From: Saprospira grandis DSM 2844
Lineage (GTDB): Bacteria > Bacteroidota > Bacteroidia > Chitinophagales > Saprospiraceae
NCBI RefSeq assembly: GCF_000275825.1
Contig: NZ_JH719942.1
Coordinates: 1,193,914-1,257,913 of the forward strand
DNA: 64,000 nt
Direction: 5' to 3'
Shown here one piece after another: positions 23,686 through 56,857 of this stretch (its first letter is position 1; each line of letters begins with the position of its first letter). The position numbers were made by a program, and so were the translations under genes. A model generated the notes under the pieces. It had not been told where the DNA came from. It did not search any database and was given only the letters and a program-made list of their open reading frames with translations.

Positions 23686-23702
23686 CTAGCTTGTTTTCTT
23701 CT

Positions 23703-23832
23703 TTTTTTGGGGCCCGCGGCCAGCAAGCTGGCCGCCGCTATGCTTTGGGGCTCGCTATTCGCTCGGCCCTTCGCTGGCTGCGCCAGCTTGGTCTGGCCTA
23801 CGGCCACCCCTCCGCAGCGCTGGGCCGCTCAA
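23703..23832 (+). repeat. GMR locus 9
   Basis: A GGGGCCCGCGGCC variant with stem GGCCAGCAAGCTGGCC, core GCTCGCTATTCGCTCGG and end CGCAGCGCTGGGCC, just past the methyltransferase stop. Bases 23833-24078 after it hold no gene or clear motif. Confidence 0.88.
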
Positions 23833-24078
23833 CGGTCTTTTTTCTTTTGGCGGTCTTCTTCGGCAGTTAATTTTATAAGCTCTAGGCTAGCTTTTCAAAC
23901 AGCCCTCTAAAGAGGGCCTTTGGATAAGGATCTTCTCTGCAATAACTATTTACTAAGGCCATCTATATCCACCTTTGAGGCCCTTTAGGGCTGACTCCAT
24001 TGGATTAGCCTAGGGGCTTGTCCCTAGGCGATGATTGGCTGCCCCTGCTTTTGAGTCTTTAGCTGGACTCATTTATTG

Positions 24079-24644
24079 CTCCTATTATAGTAGTTCTACT
24101 GTTCCAATACACTAGTTGTAGTGCTCGCATACCGTAGCTATACTGTATGATTGAGGTAGTCAAAGTCCTCTATATACGTTATGGAAGTGTATAACATACG
24201 TTGTGTAAGTGTATGATATAGGTTGTGGAACTATATCATATAGGTTATAGAACTGCATAATATAGGTTGTAGGACCCCAAATAGACGTTCCAGGACGTCT
24301 ACTTTGGGGTCCCTAGACGTCTATTTGGGGGTTAAGGGACTTATCTCATGGGGTCTAACAACCTATACAATAGAGTCCAGAACGTACCTAATGGGGTCTA
24401 GGGACCTCCTCCATGGGGTTAGGGGACCTATATCATACAGTTCGAAACGTCTATTATGGGGTTGAGGGACCTATCTCATGGGGTCTAACAACCTATACAA
24501 TAGAGTCCAGAACGTACCTAATGGGGTTGAGGGACCTACTCTATAGGGTTAGGGAACCTATATCATACAGTTCGGAACGTCTATTATGGAGTTGAGGAAC
24601 CTATATCATAGAGTATAACCACCTCTATTTAGGTTTTGGGGACA
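24079..24644. repeat. Degenerate 22-bp-period tandem array A
   Basis: About 26 consecutive units of 22 bp (three are 20 bp: 24167-24186, 24451-24470, 24581-24600). Early units share ATATAGGTTGTGGAAC; later ones share ATGGGGTTnAGGGACC. A higher-order 130-bp duplication (24341-24470 and 24471-24600) differs at about 10 positions. The period is not a multiple of three and no gene lies here. Units 24271-24314 form an 18-bp hairpin (GGACCCCAAATAGACGT with its complement). Confidence 0.8.
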
Positions 24645-24815: not shown

Positions 24816-25007
24816 TTATTTTTGTGTTGCTTTCCGTTGAATGCGATGCAAATATACGGCAAGAATTTAAACTTCCAAACATTTTTCAAGAAAAGGGAGA
24901 AAAAAACGGCAAAAAAACCTAAACCTTGGGCCAAAAGCCCTTTTTACTGGCCTTCTTTGTATTTTCGAGCTAAATTTTTCATAAAAATTATTTTGTATTC
25001 CTGCATC

Positions 25008-25161
25008 TAGCAGGCGGCGAAGCCGCCGCAGGCTGAGGGATAGTAGGGGGTGGCCGCAGGCCAGACCGAGCTTTTTTGAGCAAAGCGAAAAAAAGCGCAG
25101 GGCCGAGCGAACAGCGAGCCCCCGCATAGCCCGACCCGCCCGCAGGGCGGGGCAGCCCCAA
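25008..25161 (-). repeat. GMR locus 10
   Basis: Between the tRNA-Val promoter region and the AsmA-like gene. Stem 2 here is the long GAGCTTTTTTGAGCAAAGCG type and stem 1 is CCCGCCCGCAGGGCGGG. Confidence 0.9.
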
Positions 25162-25195
25162 ATACATCTTACTTCTCCCCAAAAAAGAAAGCGAC

Positions 25196-40777: not shown

Positions 40778-40778
40778 G

Positions 40779-40851
40779 TGATTTCGCCGGGGTTCGAACC
40801 CGGGACCCTTTGATTAAAAGTCAAATGCTCTACCAGCTGAGCTACGAAATC
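40779..40851 (-). tRNA. tRNA-Lys (anticodon UUU), copy 3 in transcript order
   Basis: A 73-base cloverleaf: acceptor GATTTCG/CGAAATC, anticodon loop CTTTTAA, T-arm GGGTTCGAACCC, discriminator A. Identical in body to the two upstream copies. Confidence 0.95.
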
Positions 40852-40887
40852 AACCTAAAAGGCTAAACTCTATATAAACTTTTCTTG

Positions 40888-40960
40888 TGATTTCGCCGGG
40901 GTTCGAACCCGGGACCCTTTGATTAAAAGTCAAATGCTCTACCAGCTGAGCTACGAAATC
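40888..40960 (-). tRNA. tRNA-Lys (anticodon UUU), copy 2
   Basis: Same 73 bases as its neighbours; spacers of 36 and 33 bases differ in sequence, so the copies are tandem genes in one probable transcript. Confidence 0.95.
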
Positions 40961-40993
40961 AATCCAGAAATTTAGCCTCTATATTATATGTTG

Positions 40994-41066
40994 TGATTTC
41001 GCCGGGGTTCGAACCCGGGACCCTTTGATTAAAAGTCAAATGCTCTACCAGCTGAGCTACGAAATC
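40994..41066 (-). tRNA. tRNA-Lys (anticodon UUU), copy 1
   Basis: First of three identical copies in transcript order. The promoter should lie in 41067-41170. Confidence 0.95.
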
Positions 41067-41173
41067 AATCCAAACTTAAGGTTAAAACCGAAATGTTTTC
41101 CTCCCTAAGCGGTTGCAAAAATAGGCAAGAATTTCTTTTGTCCAAAATATTTTAGCCCTTTTTTCAAAAAAAC

Positions 41174-48021: not shown

Positions 48022-51000
48022 ATGAGTCTAACACTTCGTCCTACGCATCAACAAATGGCAATGCAACGCCTGCACGAACGGATCGAACAGCAGATTTTGG
48101 TCATTGATGGAGCTATGGGGACCATGTTACAACAGTACAAATTGCAAGAAGCCGACTACCGCGGAGAACGCTTTGCCGACTTCCATCGCGATTTGAAGGG
48201 CAACAATGATTTGCTCTCTATTACTCAACCCCATCTGGTCACGGAGGTCCATAAGGCCTACCTAGAAGCCGGAGCCGATATTATCGAGACCAATACCTTT
48301 AACGCTACCGCTATCTCTCAGGAAGATTACGATATGCAGGAACTGGTCTATGAACTCAATTATGCCTCGGCCCAATGCGCCCGCGCCGCCGTAGATGCCT
48401 TTAATGCCGAAAACCCAGAGAAGTTTTGCTTTGTGGCCGGCGCTATGGGCCCCACCAACCGCACGGCTTCGCTCTCCCCAGATGTAAATAACCCCGGCTA
48501 TCGAGCCATTAACTTCGAACAACTACGGGCCGCCTATTATGAACAGGCCAAAGCCCTAGCCGAAGGTGGCGCCGACCTCTTCTTAGTCGAAACTGTTTTT
48601 GATACCCTCAACTGTAAAGCAGCCCTCTTTGCTATCGATCAGTATTGTGAGGAGGTAGGCATTGCCTATCCCGTTATGGTATCCGGAACCATTACCGATG
48701 CTTCTGGCCGTACCCTTTCGGGCCAAACAGTAGAAGCCTTCTGGCTGTCGGTTAGCCATGCCAACTTGTTTTCTGTTGGCCTCAACTGCGCCCTGGGCGC
48801 AGCCGAAATGCGCCCGCATATCGAAGCACTTTCTAATATTGCTCATTGCTATATTAGTGCCTACCCCAATGCAGGACTGCCCAACGAAATGGGAGAATAT
48901 GACCAAACCGCCCAAGAAATGGGCCTACTCATTGAAGATTTTGCCCAAAGTGGCTTTATCAATATCGTAGGAGGCTGCTGCGGTACTTCGCCAGCGCATA
49001 TCCGCCGAATGGTAGAGGTGGTGGCCAAGTTGCCCATACGCAAAAAGCCCGCTCCTATGCAACTCTCGGCCTATTCTGGCCTAGAACCCCTGATTGTCCG
49101 CCCCGGCTTCAACTTTATCAATGTTGGAGAACGGACCAATGTGACGGGCTCCCGCAAGTTTGCCCGCCTAATCAAAAATGGCAACTATGAAGAGGCCCTC
49201 TCTGTAGCCCAACAACAGGTAGAAGGCGGCGCCCAAATTATTGATGTGAATATGGATGAAGGAATGCTCGACTCGGTAGAGGCCATGAGCTATTTCCTCA
49301 ACCTTATCGCCTCCGAACCCGATATCGCCCGCCTGCCCATTATGATCGACTCTTCTAAATGGGAAGTGATTGAGGCCGGTCTCCGCTGCGTGCAAGGCAA
49401 GGCTATTGTCAATTCTATCTCGCTAAAAGAAGGCAAAGCGGCTTTTCTCCAACAAGCTAAATTGGTCCGCAGATATGGCGCCGCCGCCGTAGTCATGGCC
49501 TTTGATGAAGTAGGCCAAGCCGATACTATGGAACGCAAAGTGGAGATTTGTAGCCGCGCCTACAAAATCTTGACAGAAGAGGTCGGCTTCCCCCCCCAAG
49601 ATATCATCTTCGACCCCAATATTTTCGCCATCGGAACCGGTATCGAAGAACATAATAATTATGGGGTAGACTTTATTGAAGCCACTAAGGAAATTAAACG
49701 CCGCATGCCTTTGGTCAAAATTAGTGGTGGGGTGAGTAATCTCTCTTTCTCTTTCCGTGGAAATAATATCGTTCGAGAAGCTATCCACTCGGCCTTTTTG
49801 TACTATGCGGTCCAAGCAGGTATGGATATGGGCATTGTCAATGCCGGTATGATTGAGGTCTATGAAGATATTCCCAAAGAACTATTAACTCTTGTGGAGG
49901 ACCTCATCTTCAACCGCCGCCCCGATGCTACAGAACGCCTAACCGATTATGCCGAACAGCTCAAGGGCCAAGGCGGCAAGAAGCGCCAAGAGGACCTCAG
50001 CTGGCGAGAAGTGCCCGTTGAAGATCGCCTTTCCCATGCTCTAGTTAAGGGAATTACCAAGTTTGTGGTAGAAGATACCGAAGAAGCCCGACAACAATAT
50101 AGTAGCCCCCTAGATGTCATTGAAGGACCACTGATGTCGGGGATGAATATTGTAGGCGACCTCTTTGGCGCAGGAAAGATGTTCCTCCCTCAGGTGGTGA
50201 AATCCGCCCGAGTGATGAAACAGGCCGTTGCTCATCTTACCCCCTTTATTGAGGCCGAGAAATCTGCTGGCCAATCAACTAGAGGCAAAATCCTTCTGGC
50301 TACAGTCAAAGGGGATGTGCACGATATTGGGAAAAATATTGTAGGGGTGGTCTTGGCCTGCAATAACTTTGAGATCATTGATATGGGCGTTATGGTTCCC
50401 GCCAATGAAATTCTCAAAAAGGCCCAAGAAGAACAAGTAGATATTGTTGGCCTTAGCGGTTTGATTACTCCTTCTTTAGATGAAATGGTCCATATGGCCA
50501 AAGAAATGGAGCGTTTGGGCATGAAAATGCCACTATTGATTGGTGGCGCAACCACCTCTAAAACTCATACCGCCGTAAAAATTGCACCAAAATATAGTGG
50601 CCCTTCTGTACATGTTTTAGATGCCTCTAGAGCAGTTACCGTAGCCGCTTCGCTCTTGGCTAAAGAGGAAAATAAATCCGCATATATGGAGAAGGTTTTG
50701 GCCGAACAGGAACGAATCCGTCTGCAGCGTGCCAAACGGACCTCCGCCAAACGCTACCTGAGCCTAAAGAAGGCCAGAGAGAATAAACTCGCTTTAGATT
50801 GGTCCAAAATAGAGCCGGTGGTCCCCAACAAAATGGGCATTACGGTCCTTGACCAACTAGATTTGGCCACCCTTCGAGACTATATCGACTGGACGCCCTT
50901 CTTTAGCAGTTGGCAACTGGCCGGTAAGTTTCCCGCTATTTTAGAGGATGAGGTGGTGGGCCAAGAGGCTAAATCTCTCTATGCGGATGCCCAGAAGATG

Positions 51001-51735
51001 CTAGACCAAATCATTGCCGAAAACTGGTTGCAGGCCAAGGCCGTTTGTGGTCTTTTTGCCGCCAATTCCATAGATGATGATGACATTTTAGTCTATCCCA
51101 ATGGGCCAGAAGCGGAGCCGATGCGCTTGCACCATCTGCGCCAACAACGCCAAAAGGCAGCTGGAAAACCCAACTATTGTCTCAGCGATTTCTTAGCCCC
51201 TAAAGCTAGCGGAAAGACTGACTATATCGGGGCTTTTGCCGTTACTGCAGGCATTGGCATAGAACAGCATGTGGCCCGATTTGAGGCTGCTCATGATGAC
51301 TACAACGCCATTTTGCTCAAGGCTTTGGCCGATCGCTTGGCCGAGGCTGCTGCTGAATATCTTCATGCTGAGGTCCGCCGAAACTATTGGGGCTATGCAG
51401 CAGATGAGACTTTAGATAATAAAGCCTTAATTGCCGAAAACTACCAGGGAATCCGTCCCGCACCAGGCTATCCCGCCTGCCCAGAACATACCGAAAAACA
51501 AAGCTTGTTCGCCCTGCTAGAGGTGGAGGAGCGCATTGGCATTCGCCTGACGGAGAGCTATGCCATGTATCCCGCCGCTGCCGTGAGTGGTTGGTATTTT
51601 GGCCAAGAAGAGGCCCGCTATTTTGGCTTGGGCAATATCGAAAAGGATCAGACAGAAAGCTATGCGGCCCGCAAGGGCATGACGGTTGAAGAGGCCGAAC
51701 GCTGGTTGATGCCGGTCTTGAATTATGATATTTAG
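48022..51735 (+). CDS. metH: Cobalamin-dependent methionine synthase
   Basis: It encodes 1237 residues, close to the E. coli length. It methylates homocysteine from methyltetrahydrofolate through B12. Modules in order: homocysteine-binding barrel with DGAMGTML (29-36) and the zinc cysteines in GLNCALG and GGCCGTSP; pterin-binding barrel ([13 protein letters not shown]); cap and B12-binding module with DVHDIGKN, whose His coordinates cobalt; and the C-terminal activation domain that binds SAM ([29 protein letters not shown]). The TAG stop shares its G with the first base of GMR locus 21. It probably depends on B12 uptake or synthesis. Confidence 0.96.
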
Positions 51736-51884
51736 GGGCCTGCCGCCTTTGGCGGCCGGGCTGTGCACTGGCTCGCAAGTCTGCTCGGCCCTGCGGGGCT
51801 TCCGCTTCGCTTCAGCCCCTGGGTCTGCGGCTACGCCGCCCCAGTTACCATCCCTAGGCCTGCGGCCCCTTCGGGGCCTGTAGG
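51735..51884 (+). repeat. GMR locus 21, between metH stop and its terminator
   Basis: GGGGCC begins on the last base of the metH stop codon and the element ends 11 bases before the terminator at 51896. It is therefore part of the metH 3' untranslated region. Confidence 0.88.
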
Positions 51885-51895
51885 ACCCAATAAGG

Positions 51896-51927
51896 AAAGG
51901 CCCAAAACTTAGGTTTTGGGCCTTTTT
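51896..51927 (+). terminator. Intrinsic terminator of metH
   Basis: AAAGGCCCAAAACTTAGG pairs with its downstream complement, followed by five T. Confidence 0.88.
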
Positions 51928-51950
51928 CTGTTGTGGAGAGCTACTTTTAG

Positions 51951-52566
51951 CCATCAAGAGGGGTTCCCATACCCATCAGGAGGGGTTCCTATACCCATCA
52001 AGAGGGGTTCCCATACCCATCAAGAGGGGTTCCCATACCTATCAAGAGGGGTTCCCATACCCATCGAGAGGGGTTCCCATACCCATCGAGAGGGGTTCCC
52101 ATACCCATTCGCAGGGGGTTGGCTAGCCCTCTAGGGGGCTAGCCTTAGTCCTCCCAAGGGCTATTCCTAATCATTAGGACTATTCTTCTACCTCCAAGCG
52201 AGGGCTTGTCTTAGTCCTCCCAAGGACCTAATCAAATCCTCTTGAGGGGCAGCTCTAATCCTCTAGAGCTGGCCTCCTAGTCCTCAGGACCATTCTTCTA
52301 CCTAAAGAGGAGGACTTAGGCTAGTCATCGGCAGGACTTGAACTGCTCCAAAGGAGGACCTATAGAGGTCCTCTAGAGCAACTAGACCTATAGTATAGAG
52401 GACTTGAATAGGCCCAAAAGAGGAGCTACAGAAGCCCTCTAAAGGACCTCCCCTGCCCCAAGCGAGGACTTGGACAAGTACTATTGAGGAGCTATACAAA
52501 TACAAGCGAGGAGCTCACTAAGTCCTGCTGAGGGGGTTCAGTACTCCTCGCCCTTATTTCAGTCCT
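51951..52566. repeat. Degenerate 22-bp-period tandem array B
   Basis: Seven near-identical 22-bp units (51951-52104; core AGAGGGGTTCCCATAC) pass without change of register into at least 20 diverged units (52105-52544, partial to 52566). In the diverged part the best-kept positions are a pyrimidine-rich start (TCCTC) and AGGR at positions 9-12 (for example GAGGACTT). Twenty-seven units keep exactly 22 bp with no insertion or deletion. No gene is present. Confidence 0.85.
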
Positions 52567-52585
52567 TTTTGGGAAGATTTGGCAC

Positions 52586-52623
52586 AAAAAAGGAACCAAG
52601 GCCAGAAGGTCTTGGCTCCTTTT
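52586..52623. terminator. Hairpin at the end of array B
   Basis: AAAAGGAACCAAGGCC-agaa-GGTCTTGGCTCCTTTT. The longer T-tract is on the minus strand (TTTTTTGTGCC). Bases 52624-52702 hold nothing else recognisable. Confidence 0.65.
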
Positions 52624-52702
52624 GAGGAAAGAACTGAACTAAAGTTTTAACAAAAAAAGTCAATTCTGCGATTTTAATCTATGGTTTTAAATTATCTATT
52701 TT

Positions 52703-52710
52703 TATATTTG
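52703..52710 (+). promoter_or_regulatory. Candidate promoter of the phase-variable toxin gene
   Basis: TATATTTG fits the TAnnTTTG -7 element and lies 23 bases before the ATG at 52734. This favours that ATG as the true start. Confidence 0.5.
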
Positions 52711-52733
52711 ACTATTATTTAAGCGATAACTAA

Positions 52734-54444
52734 ATGTCCATGCAAGACCACAGACAGACAGACAGACAGACAGACAGACTATGATGGTCAGTTAACTGCT
52801 GTACAACAACTTCATGTTTTAGGCCGTAAAATTAGCCGAGAAGAACTTCCATTAGAGGAGGGCGAAGAGCGGCAATTTTGGCTTACAGAGCCCTATTATT
52901 TTTCGCCCAATATTGCAGAAGAAGGATTTGGCGAGGCCTACATCAATCGTTTGGAAATGGGCCCCACTGGAGTAGAAGAAATGAACCTTCTGCTTTCTGG
53001 CTTTTTTCAGCGCTATGTCTCTTTTGAGCCTATTGATCAGATAGAACTTAGCGGGCAACTAGACGGAAGCTGGGAGGTCCATATTCCTCAGTTTTCGGAT
53101 CTATCTCGGGGCTTAGATCAGGTTTCCCTTGCATTTAGTTGGCAGGAAGAGCATGAGTTTACTGCCGCATTAGAGCAGCAATTAGCCGCAGGAGGACAGC
53201 CCGCTAAGAATATTGAGGAGGAAATCCAAAACTGCAAACATTGTCCAGAAGAAGCCATAGAAGGCCAGCAATATGAAGATGCAGACGGAAAGCGCTACCA
53301 ATATGAGAATGGGCAATGGCTCGAGCATATCTGGACCGCCCCGATGGTAGAACCCATCCCTGTTAAGGCAGATAGAATAACTGCTGAAGGCAGTTCCTTC
53401 TGGGATTGGGCCAAAATTGGGGCAGAAATAGCTATTGGCTTCACTCCTTTTGGGGTTGTTTTAGATGTTATTGATTTAGGGAAAGCAATTGCGGGGGGAC
53501 ATCCAACGGATATTGCTATTGCTATGATTGGCTTTTTGCCTGCTGGGGATTTACTAAAGGCAGGGAAAAAAATTGGTGGAGGCTTAGAAGATATACTTAA
53601 GCATACCGATGAACTTGCTCCCTTTGGCGTTCAGCCGCCCAAACTGCAAGCACCTCCTAAAGAACTTGAAAAGCTAAAAGAACTACAAAAGCAAGTTCCA
53701 GAAGGCCCCAAAGCAGCTAAAGAAAGTCCGCCAATTCAAAATAATGAAGCCCCAAAAGTAGAAACACCAAAAGCAGAGCCCCCAAAACTAGAGGAACCTC
53801 AGCTAAAAGAGCCCGAACTCAAAGAGGAAATTCCCTTAGAAAAGGAGCTGGGCAAACAAGAGGCGCCAGAACTACAGGCCCCAAAAACAGAGGAAGGAAA
53901 GACTCCCCCTAAAGTTTATATTCCAGATGATGAAGACTTTGTCCGTTTACAGAAAGGAAAACTAGGGAAATACGACGAGGGGGATAAAATTCCTAAAGCG
54001 GAATATGAAAAGCTGATTAGGGAGTATAAACGAGAGCAGTTAGCGGCTAAAAAGATAGCCAGGAAAGGAGGTTTAAACAATGGCCCTAAAGAGCTAGAGA
54101 ATCATGCTAAAAAAGGTGACCATATTAAGAATATAATACCTAAAATAAATCATCAAAAACAAGCGGGCCATGTAAAAGGCACTCCTCAATTTAACAATAG
54201 ATTAAAAGGCAATAAAGCTACATCGTATTTTGAAGACATGGAAAGTGCTAAAAAATTAACTCTGGAGGCTTGGGAAAAAGGGACCGTTGTTAAAAAACAA
54301 AAAAATAGTGGTGCAATTGTTAAAGATTATGAATTTGGAAAAAATATAGGTGTCGGCCCAAAAGGAGGAGTACAAACAAAAGTTCGAGTACATCAAAATT
54401 CTAAAGGTGAAATCCATGGGCATCCTGCTGGCCCAGAAAAATAA
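52734..54444 (+). CDS. Polymorphic toxin, Ntox50-like tip, frame set by ACAG tract
   Basis: Reading from the ATG at 52734 gives MSMQDHRQTDRQTDRL and stops at 52782. The body frame is open from 52723 to 54444 but has no ATG, GTG or TTG until TTG at 52951. With one ACAG unit less, or two more, the two join to give about 568 residues. Positions counted from 52951: a beta-rich N-terminal part (to about 130, NCKHC at 94-98); a hydrophobic pretoxin-like segment (155-205, FTPFGVVLDVIDLGKAI); a Pro/Glu/Lys-rich linker (228-320); a C-terminal domain (400-497) with QAGHVKGTPQFNNRL and HQNSKGEIHGHP, resembling polymorphic toxin type 50, a BECR-fold nuclease. No signal peptide. The adjacent gene is probably its immunity gene. 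Confidence 0.7.
52750..52779 (+). repeat. Tetranucleotide tract (ACAG)7.5
   Basis: Seven and a half perfect 4-bp units directly after the ATG region of the toxin gene. Each unit gained or lost shifts the frame by one base. Confidence 0.97.
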
Positions 54445-54451
54445 TACAACT

Positions 54452-54910
54452 ATGAGTAAGCTAAAAAAAACAATATCAGACATACGTTCAAAGTATGGCA
54501 ATCTAGATGATCCAGATTATTTATTCATCATTAAAACTTATGACCAAAATCCATATCGAAACCTAATAGCCAAAATGTCAAGCTACCTAAGTCTGCTTGA
54601 CATTACAGATATCAACTATGACGCAAGCTTTGCTTTTAGTATAAAAACAAAGACCTCAAATCATCTTTTAATGATGTCTATGGTGGGAAAGTATGCAGTT
54701 TTGATTCGACAGCCTGATGTTGAATTTGAGTTTGTCAGTGAAAACAGCACAACAGACATTACAGAAGAAGAGAAGTTAATACTGCACTTACTTTTGGATG
54801 AGGGCTTTGAGCTGGTTGATGAATCTTTACTGTATAAAGTGGTATCAAATTCAGAAAATGAAGATGGAGAAAAGCTGAATGTATACCATTTGCTATTTTC
54901 AAGGGTGTAA
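54452..54910 (+). CDS. Probable immunity protein for the toxin
   Basis: It encodes 152 residues. It starts 7 bases after the toxin stop, on the same strand; the ATG at 54452 (MSKLKKTISDIRSKYG) is chosen over the longer frame from 54350, which overlaps the toxin tip. It is small, acidic and without a signal peptide (ITEEEKLILHLLLDEGFELVDE), as expected for a cytoplasmic inhibitor of a basic nuclease. Base composition is AT-rich like the toxin tip. No named immunity family was recognised. If the toxin can be switched off by the repeat, this gene could still need its own promoter to protect against sister cells. Confidence 0.6.
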   Translation: MSKLKKTISDIRSKYGNLDDPDYLFIIKTYDQNPYRNLIAKMSSYLSLLDITDINYDASFAFSIKTKTSNHLLMMSMVGKYAVLIRQPDVEFEFVSENSTTDITEEEKLILHLLLDEGFELVDESLLYKVVSNSENEDGEKLNVYHLLFSRV

Positions 54911-54938
54911 ATGAGGTAACTACCTGCCATTTAACCCT

Positions 54939-55088
54939 AGCGCCCGAAGCGCAGAACTTCCATTCGGCCTAGGGGCCTGCAAGGGGGCCGCGTAGCGGCA
55001 GACCCAGCCAGCTTGCTGGCGCAGGGCCGAGCAGACCTGCGAGCCCTGAAAGGGCCCGGCCGCCGAAGGCGGCAGGCCCCAAAAAAAA
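54939..55088 (-). repeat. GMR locus 22
   Basis: Nearly identical to locus 24, which has the same orientation 1.8 kb downstream (both share GGCCTAGGGGCCTGCAAGGG and CCAGCCAGCTTGCTGGCGC). Located after the immunity gene. Confidence 0.9.
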
Positions 55089-55157
55089 TGTAGCTTTAAG
55101 ATACTGAGATGAATCGGAGACCTTGGGTAAAGGATTCCGCACTAAAATAAATAGATA

Positions 55158-55514
55158 ATGAAAGAGGAAAAATTTGTAGAATGTGTATTCTTTGCAGAAT
55201 ATGAGAATGCAATGGTTGTAGCCAAAGATTGGAGCTTAGAGAAAATGACGTCTATCATCATTGCACAGCTTAGAGAAGAAGGTCCCGCAATAAGTTGTTA
55301 TGGTTTTTTTGTTTATTTATTATCCTGTTGGCCAATAGAGAAGCATTTGGCTATACATGAAACCTTAGGCCACATACTTTCTGCAGAAATGAATGACATC
55401 ATGGGAGGAGGCAAAATGACGGCCATTTATCACTTAAGAGAGGCTTTGGCTCTTGCGCCTGATAAAGAAGAAAATAAATTACAGTTAGAAAAACTCTTAG
55501 ACAATGTTACTTGA
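55158..55514 (+). CDS. Small helical protein, TPR-like tail (possible immunity)
   Basis: It encodes 118 residues. No signal peptide. The N-terminal part is mixed (VECVFFAEYENAMVVAKDW), then helical. The C-terminus (AIYHLREALALAPDKEENKLQLEKLLD) has the form of a single TPR-type repeat and resembles the tail of the next gene, so the two are probably diverged duplicates. Stop overlaps the next start by 11 bases, so they are translationally coupled. Location in the toxin island between two near-identical GMR copies suggests orphan immunity or regulatory genes. Function unproven. Confidence 0.5.
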   Translation: MKEEKFVECVFFAEYENAMVVAKDWSLEKMTSIIIAQLREEGPAISCYGFFVYLLSCWPIEKHLAIHETLGHILSAEMNDIMGGGKMTAIYHLREALALAPDKEENKLQLEKLLDNVT

Positions 55515-55917
55515 AATTCTAGAAGAGATTCGCTTTAAAAAAATGATTAAACTTATTCAGGAAGGCAGATTTGGAGAGGTTTGGGCAGAGTTAGATCGGA
55601 CTAAAACGCCCGAAAGTGAGAAAAAAGAAGAGCAAGCAGCCTTTTGGAGAAAGGTTGCAATTACTATATGGAGTTATAGTGATTATCAGATGGTTTACTA
55701 TGCATTTTATGCTTACCCTTTATGGCATTCAAAAAGCAGTGAAAAAAAATATCAAGCACATTTTGACTGTTGTATTTTACTGAGAAATTGTCTTCTGTAC
55801 ATGCCCTATGCTTTGTATTTAGCTGAATATCATTTGCTAGAGGCCTTAAAGCTTAATCCTGGAGATGACTTTTTAGAAAAAAAGTTGGTAAATCTAAGAT
55901 ATGAACAAAACTATTAG
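55504..55917 (+). CDS. Small helical protein, TPR-like tail, paralog of the previous gene
   Basis: It encodes 137 residues. Helical and rich in aromatic residues (YYAFYAYPLWHSKSSEKKYQ). The tail (AEYHLLEALKLNPGDDFLEKKLVNLRYEQN) is TPR-like and similar to that of 55158-55514. AT-rich. It overlaps the previous gene by 11 bases and is followed by GMR locus 23. No family recognised; immunity is the leading guess from context. Confidence 0.5.
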   Translation: MLLEILEEIRFKKMIKLIQEGRFGEVWAELDRTKTPESEKKEEQAAFWRKVAITIWSYSDYQMVYYAFYAYPLWHSKSSEKKYQAHFDCCILLRNCLLYMPYALYLAEYHLLEALKLNPGDDFLEKKLVNLRYEQNY

Positions 55918-55965
55918 AAGAATAGTTGGCAGATCTAAGATATGAAAGCTGATAGCTGTTTTGTA

Positions 55966-56270
55966 TAGGCCTCCCGCCTTTGGCGGGCGGTTACTCCCGT
56001 TGGTCGTCGAACTGCGGCCTAAAGTCCTTGTTGTCGTTTACTTCGTCGAACTGGCGCCTCTTCGAGGCTGGTTGTCGGGGCTCGCTGTTACTTGCTTCGC
56101 TGCGTCGGCTCCCGTTGGTCGGGTCGCTCGGCCCTGCGGCGGCTTTGCCGCCTTGGTCTGGCCTTCGGCCACCCCTGCACATCGGTTACTCCCTTTGGTC
56201 GTCGAACTGCGCCCTAAAGGGCTTGTTGTGGCCTGCGGCCCTAGGGGCCTGCTATATGGGCCTGTAGGTT
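55966..56270 (+). repeat. GMR locus 23 with nested GTTACTCC modules
   Basis: The longest copy. GTTACTCCCGTTGGTCGTCG at 55989 and GTTACTCCCTTTGGTCGTCG at 56184 are both followed by GAACTGCG and a short hairpin; a partial third repeat (CGTCGAACTGGCGCC) lies at 56045. Confidence 0.85.
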
Positions 56271-56692
56271 GAAACCTACAGCCAATTAACGAATGCATTT
56301 TTGTGTTCAATGGAGGGTTGAAACCCTCCATAAATAAACATTTTAGCCCTTCTTTGCTGATGGAGCCTAGTGGAACAGCAAATCCCCTCGAATGAGGGGA
56401 TGGCGATTTTTTCGATAGCCTAGGGCCTTGGCCCTAGGGTTCCTATGAAATTTATGGGGGAGAAATAATAGCAATTGTTTTTTAGTGTAGAATTGTTTTG
56501 GGCCCATGGGCTGAAGCCCATGGTTGTAGACTGAGCAAAGAGCGGGCTAAAGCCCTTGTTTGCTGGAAAATGAAAAAGGTTCGCTCCAAGAAAAAAACAA
56601 TCCTTGTTCAAAGCGGTAGAGGATTTTAATCCTCTCCGCACTATAGATGTAGAATGGGGGTGTTGTATGGCTGCTGGTTTCAACCTGCAGCC
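56262..56692. repeat. Cluster of eight small hairpins
   Basis: Stem-loops of 12-24 bases at 56262-56281 (TGTAGGTTGAAACCTACA), 56311-56330 (GGAGGGTTGAAACCCTCC), 56382-56401, 56419-56438, 56504-56523 (CCATGGGCTGAAGCCCATGG), 56544-56555, 56618-56635 and 56669-56692. Stems vary but remain complementary; loops are mostly GA, AA or TT based. A relative is at 1236-1255. No gene is present. Confidence 0.7.
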
Positions 56693-56696
56693 ACAG

Positions 56697-56857
56697 CTAG
56701 CAGGCGGCGAAGCCGCCGCAAAGGAGCGAAGCGACTTGGCCTAGGGGCCTGCAAGGGGGCCGCGCAGCGGCAGACCCAGCCAGCTTGCTGGCGCAGGGCC
56801 GAGCAGACCTGCGAGCCCTGCAAGGGCCCGGCCGCCGCAGGCGGCAGGCCCCAAAAA
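56697..56857 (-). repeat. GMR locus 24
   Basis: Near-identical to locus 22. Its T-tract is shared with the terminator of the nucleoside kinase gene. Confidence 0.9.

What the first reader, a model, noticed from the sequence alone, without database searches (positions are those of the whole stretch)
51951..52566. Array B: at least 27 units at exactly 22 bp, sequence lost but period kept
Seven near-identical 22-bp units continue in exact register into about 20 strongly diverged ones, with the same positions still weakly conserved (TCCTC start, AGGR at 9-12). Ordinary tandem repeats decay by indels as well as substitutions; here indels are absent over 594 bp. This suggests that spacing itself is under selection, for example for a protein that binds one face of the helix every two turns, or a processed RNA. 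The period is not a multiple of three and no spacer structure exists, so it is neither coding nor a CRISPR.
Basis: seen in the sequence. Interest (0 to 1): 0.85.

Follow-up and report, generated by a model that had tools for sequence, protein, structure and literature searches.

The report
Two-turn repeat arrays in Saprospira DNA
The odd 22-base repeat block is real and is one of several dozen related blocks scattered between the genes of the predatory marine bacterium Saprospira, all built from units about two turns of the DNA helix long, with unit length kept while sequence drifts or is swapped, which suggests that something in the cell reads the spacing of the DNA.

Summary
The array exists as described: 28 units in exact 22-bp register at 51951-52566, 7 near-identical and about 20 diverged, far above chance. 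The genome is a Saprospira; its relative G057 is S. grandis str. Lewin. The array is not unique. The window holds a second one (24051-24624), and the genome probably holds several dozen (7 strong ones in a 400-kb systematic sample; none in 400 kb of four other Saprospiraceae genera). Nearly all non-coding, non-CRISPR arrays have periods near multiples of 21-22 bp, although unit sequences fall into several unrelated families. Many abut one shared 'tail' element. At loci with conserved flanks the two species often carry different arrays. In diverged arrays that do align, 87 substitutions and no indels separate the species, against 922:171 in other intergenic DNA (p=1.5e-6). In array B, half-sites of about 8 bp alternate in orientation every 11 bp and the bases between them vary most. 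Arms do not covary and G-T pairs are not enriched, which argues against an RNA hairpin. Best reading: a phased double-stranded protein-binding array, selected on spacing. The main rival is a neutral satellite homogenised by gene conversion. The binding protein is unknown.

The parts
51951..52104 (+). Array B, homogeneous part: seven near-identical 22-bp units (CCATCAAGAGGGGTTCCCATAC)
   Evidence: TRF and unit listing; unit number differs by whole units in S. grandis Lewin
52105..52566 (+). Array B, diverged part: about 20 units in the same 22-bp register, inverted half-sites (GAGGACTT type) every 11 bp
   Evidence: Autocorrelation; five collinear copies without indels over 52127-52562; phase-dependent variability
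51893..51928 (+). Terminator-like palindrome AAGGCCCAAAACTTAGGTTTTGGGCCTTTTT just before array B, shared with other B-type arrays
   Evidence: Read in the sequence; shared by paralogue and L046
51731..51893 (+). GC-rich dispersed intergenic element between the upstream gene and array B
   Evidence: Many genomic copies
52585..52626 (.). Terminator-like palindrome AAAAAAGGAACCAAGGCCAGAAGGTCTTGGCTCCTTTT after array B
   Evidence: Read in the sequence
24051..24624 (+). Array A: second two-turn array in the window, units of 21-22 bp with 65- and 130-bp higher-order repeats
   Evidence: 96% identical and indel-free in Lewin
48022..51735 (+). Upstream neighbour of array B: 1237-aa ORF (looks like methionine synthase MetH from memory, not searched), conserved in place in Lewin

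Best explanation
Array B is one member of a Saprospira-specific class of intergenic tandem arrays whose common property is a unit of about two helical turns (21-22 bp or small multiples). They most likely work as double-stranded DNA scaffolds: a dimeric or oligomeric DNA-binding protein occupies half-sites placed in helical phase (in array B an approximately 8-bp half-site, GAGGACTT, inverted every 11 bp), and neighbouring molecules touch, so that a one-base shift breaks the contacts while base changes, above all between half-sites, are tolerated. Shown: the anatomy, the period rule, the lack of indels, the phase-dependent variability, dispersal, absence from the sampled stretches of other genera, and turnover at fixed loci. 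Inferred: that selection by a bound protein causes this, and that it serves chromosome architecture, segregation or silencing rather than one neighbouring gene. The protein is not identified.
For: No indel against 87 substitutions in three orthologous diverged arrays, versus 922:171 in other intergenic DNA (p=1.5e-6) and 37:7 in the flanks of array A (p=3e-4). Substitutions depend on unit position (p=0.003 for period 22, p=0.0008 for 11; of periods 15-30 only 22 stands out) and are fewest in the half-sites. Dyad centres at 6.5 and 17.5, 11 bp apart. Complementarity is explained by each half-site matching one motif, with no arm-to-arm covariation, as for protein sites. Several unrelated unit families share the two-turn length. 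No gene-orientation preference.
Against: No binding protein identified. Families have different sequences, so one ordinary sequence-specific protein cannot read them all. Arrays are replaced or absent between species at many loci, so no single array is indispensable. Single 21- and 23-bp units exist and some families mix 21 and 22 bp. Substitutions without indels can also come from gene conversion, of which there are signs. Dyad symmetry is clear only in B-type arrays.
Confidence: 0.45

Rival explanations
1. Neutral or selfish satellite DNA. Arrays expand by slippage or unequal exchange, are homogenised by gene conversion between units and between loci, and move between loci by recombination through shared flanking repeats. 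The fixed length follows from copying whole units, and conversion adds substitutions without indels.
For: Unit number varies by whole units. Own B/Lewin B differences are clustered and the four copies show conflicting site patterns. Array B diverges faster (83% to its orthologue) than other intergenic DNA (95%). Arrays at the same locus are swapped between species and sit among shared dispersed repeats.
Against: Does not explain why unrelated unit families all have two-turn lengths. The own2/g2 orthologous pair has unclustered differences and still no indels (38:0). Array A is indel-free with only 22 substitutions, beside flanks that have seven gaps.
Confidence: 0.35
2. The arrays are transcribed and act as chains of small RNA hairpins (sponge, attenuator or processed RNA).
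For: Diverged part folds better than shuffles on both strands (z -3.5 and -2.7); one 42-bp array folds very well (L088, z -4.6 and -9.5). In some 21-bp arrays stems look different but complementary between arrays.
Against: No arm covariation and no G-T excess in five copies of array B; homogeneous part z -0.4 and +2.1, and most other arrays tested near 0; no Rfam family; array B lies between two terminator-like palindromes; two-turn pitch has no meaning for RNA.
Confidence: 0.1
3. Iteron-like binding sites of plasmid or phage replication proteins, kept on the chromosome as remnants or as decoys that titrate the initiators of invading replicons.
For: Two-turn direct repeats beside an A+T-rich conserved stretch (the 21-bp class has TTGTTAAAAATGAAAATAATGTAACAAAATC at one end), several unrelated unit families, and swapping at fixed loci.
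Against: Array B has no match in 72,556 plasmid and 50,697 phage records. Two other unit types have no exact match in 2.9 million viral contigs. Several dozen copies per chromosome is unlike an origin.
Confidence: 0.07

Closest known systems
Plasmid centromere arrays, e.g. parS/sopC of the F plasmid (twelve 43-bp tandem repeats with 16-bp inverted-repeat motifs bound by ParB; PMC6238139)
   Same: Tandem array of inverted-repeat-bearing units of about two or four helical turns, non-coding; one Saprospira class has a 43-bp period
   Different: Several dozen loci per chromosome, several unit families, no adjacent parAB operon looked for or seen, swapped between species
Plasmid iterons (general knowledge: 17-22-bp direct repeats bound by Rep)
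   Same: Unit length near two turns, unit sequence differs between families, A+T-rich stretch at one end in the 21-bp class
   Different: Not at an origin, no rep gene seen, many copies; no match of array B in plasmid or phage records
Bacterial minisatellites / VNTR
   Same: Tandem, intergenic, unit number varies between strains
   Different: Period restricted to multiples of about 21-22 bp; diverged units keep register; shared tail element
REP/BIME elements
   Same: Dispersed, intergenic, partly palindromic, sometimes tandem
   Different: REP units are longer and of few consensus types, and BIME spacing is not two turns (general knowledge); no RAYT gene looked for

Membership tests
CRISPR array | Unique spacers between repeats | tested here: not met
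   Units abut with no spacer; genuine CRISPRs of this genome have a 36-bp repeat and about 35-bp spacers
Protein-coding repeat | Open frame through the array | tested here: not met
   4-15 stops in each of six frames in all five copies
Bacterial minisatellite / VNTR | Tandem repeats with copy-number variation between strains | tested here: met
   Homogeneous part of array B differs by whole units between the two genomes
Plasmid-type centromere (parS/parC) array | Repeated inverted or direct sites bound by a partition protein encoded nearby | not tested
Plasmid iterons | Direct repeats of about two turns at a replication origin next to rep | tested here: inconclusive
   Repeat length fits; no match of array B in plasmid or phage records; rep genes not searched near arrays
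Structured non-coding RNA | Covarying stems | tested here: not met
   Arms pair no better within a unit than between units; no G-T excess; tested for array B only
Structured non-coding RNA | Transcription | not testable with these tools

The most novel reading that the evidence does not exclude
Saprospira chromosomes carry several dozen exchangeable intergenic modules (array plus shared tail) whose function depends on a two-turn DNA pitch rather than on a fixed sequence: a bacterial analogue of centromeric satellite DNA, read by a phase-sensitive, weakly sequence-specific chromosome protein.
Probability: 0.2. Interest if true: 0.85.

Novelty: new variant of a known kind. Interest (0 to 1): 0.62.

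Why it matters
Satellite-like DNA whose length is conserved while its sequence turns over is a eukaryotic theme. A bacterium with several dozen such arrays at conserved loci, and two sequenced species carrying different arrays at many of them, would let one test directly whether helical phase alone can be the selected property of a DNA element. It would also expose a chromosome-organising protein in a poorly studied group of predators. If the arrays prove neutral, they are a clean case of satellite turnover in a bacterial chromosome.

Tried and rejected
Coding (stops in all frames). CRISPR (no spacers, and no convincing spacer match to the arrays). Rfam RNA (only tRNAs). RNA hairpins. Plasmid or phage origin of array B (no match). 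Viral copies of B units (six single 17-mer matches, taken as chance) and of two other unit types (none). Promoter or terminator role by gene orientation (no preference). Dyad symmetry as the rule for all families: tested on 52 consensus units, only weak on average (mean z 0.6), clear in B-type arrays only. Extra conservation of array A (96%) was rejected as evidence of function because other intergenic DNA is about 95% identical. The S. grandis Lewin and Sa g1 genome papers are not held; the type-strain paper does not mention such arrays, and searches on tandem repeats found no report.

Full report
What the window shows. Array B begins 216 bp after the stop of a 1237-aa ORF, just past a terminator-like palindrome, and runs from 51951 to 52566 in one 22-bp register. 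TRF sees only the first 7.2 copies, but in the diverged remainder the five best lags are 110, 22, 66, 44 and 88 (0.46-0.55 identity against 0.25 +/- 0.06). A second array of this type lies at 24051-24624 in the same window.

Where it comes from. A pattern scan of named genomes together with the contig length (4,345,237) identifies G057 as Saprospira grandis str. Lewin, NC_016940.1. The window's genome is the other Saprospira species held (4.5 Mb). Aligned coding DNA of the two is 94.1% identical and aligned intergenic DNA 94.6%.

A class, not a single array. Array B has a nearly full-length paralogue in the same genome (84%, C2:2464788) and partial relatives at other loci. Array A has its own relatives. 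Autocorrelation and TRF on fetched stretches show many further arrays. Loci fetched by similarity are biased towards A- and B-like arrays, so density was taken from 20 stretches of 20 kb placed at roughly regular intervals: seven strong two-turn arrays in 400 kb, which extrapolates to roughly 75 per chromosome with a wide error. Four other Saprospiraceae genera gave none in 400 kb. Apart from CRISPRs, coding repeats, a 48-bp repeat inside a 134-aa ORF (L046/L058) and one weak 41-bp call (L086), TRF periods are 21, 22, 41-44, 65, 84-88 and 126-129. Examples of unrelated units: CCATCAAGAGGGGTTCCCATAC (22), TAGGTCTGGCTGCTAGCTGGG (21), GAACTGGTTCACCCCCAGACC (21), an 84-bp array built from four 21-mers of the type TAGCTCGACCTAAGGCGCCAC, and a 42-bp unit containing AATTTGTGAAACGGCATTTGTAAAG. 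The unit length is common to them; the sequence is not.

Modules and turnover. A 115-bp 'tail' (GACTGTTCAGGATTTTGTGTATTAGAATAAAATTTGGGCC...) has 26 near-complete copies in the genome; in 20 of them a 21-, 42- or 43/44-bp periodic array abuts its start, against 0.7% of random 180-bp segments. It sits next to arrays of most families. A second conserved stretch, A+T-rich, precedes many 21-bp arrays. At loci with orthologous flanks the two species may carry the same array (A, B, L045/L056, L052/L075, L054/L161), different arrays (L088/L163, L084/L162, L083/L165, L132/L169, L049/L160, L047/L157), or one species none (L046/L058). Arrays lie between genes in all orientations without preference; the few ORFs that overlap arrays are short and look incidental.

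Is the spacing constrained? In array B, five copies (own B, own paralogue, three in Lewin) are collinear over 436 bp without an indel at 78-91% identity. The stricter comparison uses clean orthologous pairs: own2/g2 38 substitutions, L054/L161 27, array A 22, together 87 and no indel. Elsewhere in intergenic DNA the ratio is 922 substitutions to 171 gap openings (Fisher p=1.5e-6), and in the immediate flanks of array A 37 to 7 (p=3e-4). The arrays cannot be told apart from coding DNA in this respect (4278:117, p=0.17). The direct own B/Lewin B comparison (76 substitutions, no indel) is left out of the test because its differences are clustered and the copies show conflicting site patterns, which indicates conversion between copies. 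The constraint is not absolute: copies in Lewin contain single 21- or 23-bp units near the junction, and some families mix 21 and 22.

What is constrained inside the unit? Variability depends on unit position (p=0.003 for period 22, p=0.0008 for 11; no other period from 15 to 30 stands out). It is high at positions 5-7 and 16-18 and lowest at 3-4, 9-11 and 20. Two dyad centres, 6.5 and 17.5, have 46-49% complementary pairs against 26% on average. Folding the units into 11-mers gives one half-site, roughly G-A-G-G-A-C-T-T, in alternating orientation. This is the arrangement expected for a protein that repeats along the helix about once per turn, facing alternately each way. Two limits: units within one array are related by descent, so conversion towards a consensus could produce part of this pattern; and dyad symmetry is not general in the other families.

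Why not RNA. If stems were selected, arms in the same unit should match better than arms from different units. They do not, and G-T pairs are not favoured over A-C. The folding excess of the diverged part is present on both strands, as a DNA dyad gives, and the homogeneous part has none. One 42-bp array (L088) does fold strongly, so RNA is not excluded for every family. No Rfam family matches.

Assessment. Selection on spacing by a bound protein explains the two-turn rule, the lack of indels and the phase pattern together, but no protein is known, and different families would need either a phase-reading protein or several paralogues. Neutral satellite dynamics explain turnover, unit-number change and part of the substitution excess, but not why unrelated units share a two-turn length. 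I put the first at 0.45 and the second at 0.35. Centromere arrays of the sopC type (twelve 43-bp repeats with inverted motifs; PMC6238139) and iterons are the nearest functional analogues; membership in either is not shown. I found no published description in the papers held, but the two older S. grandis genome papers could not be read.

Noticed in passing
L091:22-15493 and L077:28-2179 (own genome C2 near 3.62 Mb and 0.10 Mb): Very large CRISPR arrays: 219 and 31 exact repeats GTTTCAATGCTGCTTCGCCTGCAAAGGGTTTAGTAT; no spacer convincingly matches the two-turn arrays.
   Followed up: partly
window 52563-56843: The 4.3 kb to the right of array B is absent at the orthologous place in S. grandis Lewin, where about 1.2 kb of other DNA stands.
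   Followed up: no
window 51731-51893, 23688-23826, 25006-25162 and others: GC-rich dispersed element of about 130-160 bp next to gene ends, many copies in both Saprospira genomes.
   Followed up: no
window 40778-41074: Three identical tRNA genes in tandem at 106-109 bp spacing.
   Followed up: no
window 52750-52779: An (ACAG)7.5 microsatellite 171 bp before the start of the 497-aa ORF at 52951, possibly a phase-variation tract.
   Followed up: no
L046:12500-12761 and L058:2483-2740: A 48-bp tandem repeat shared by both species inside a 134-aa ORF, possibly a coding repeat of 16 residues.
   Followed up: no
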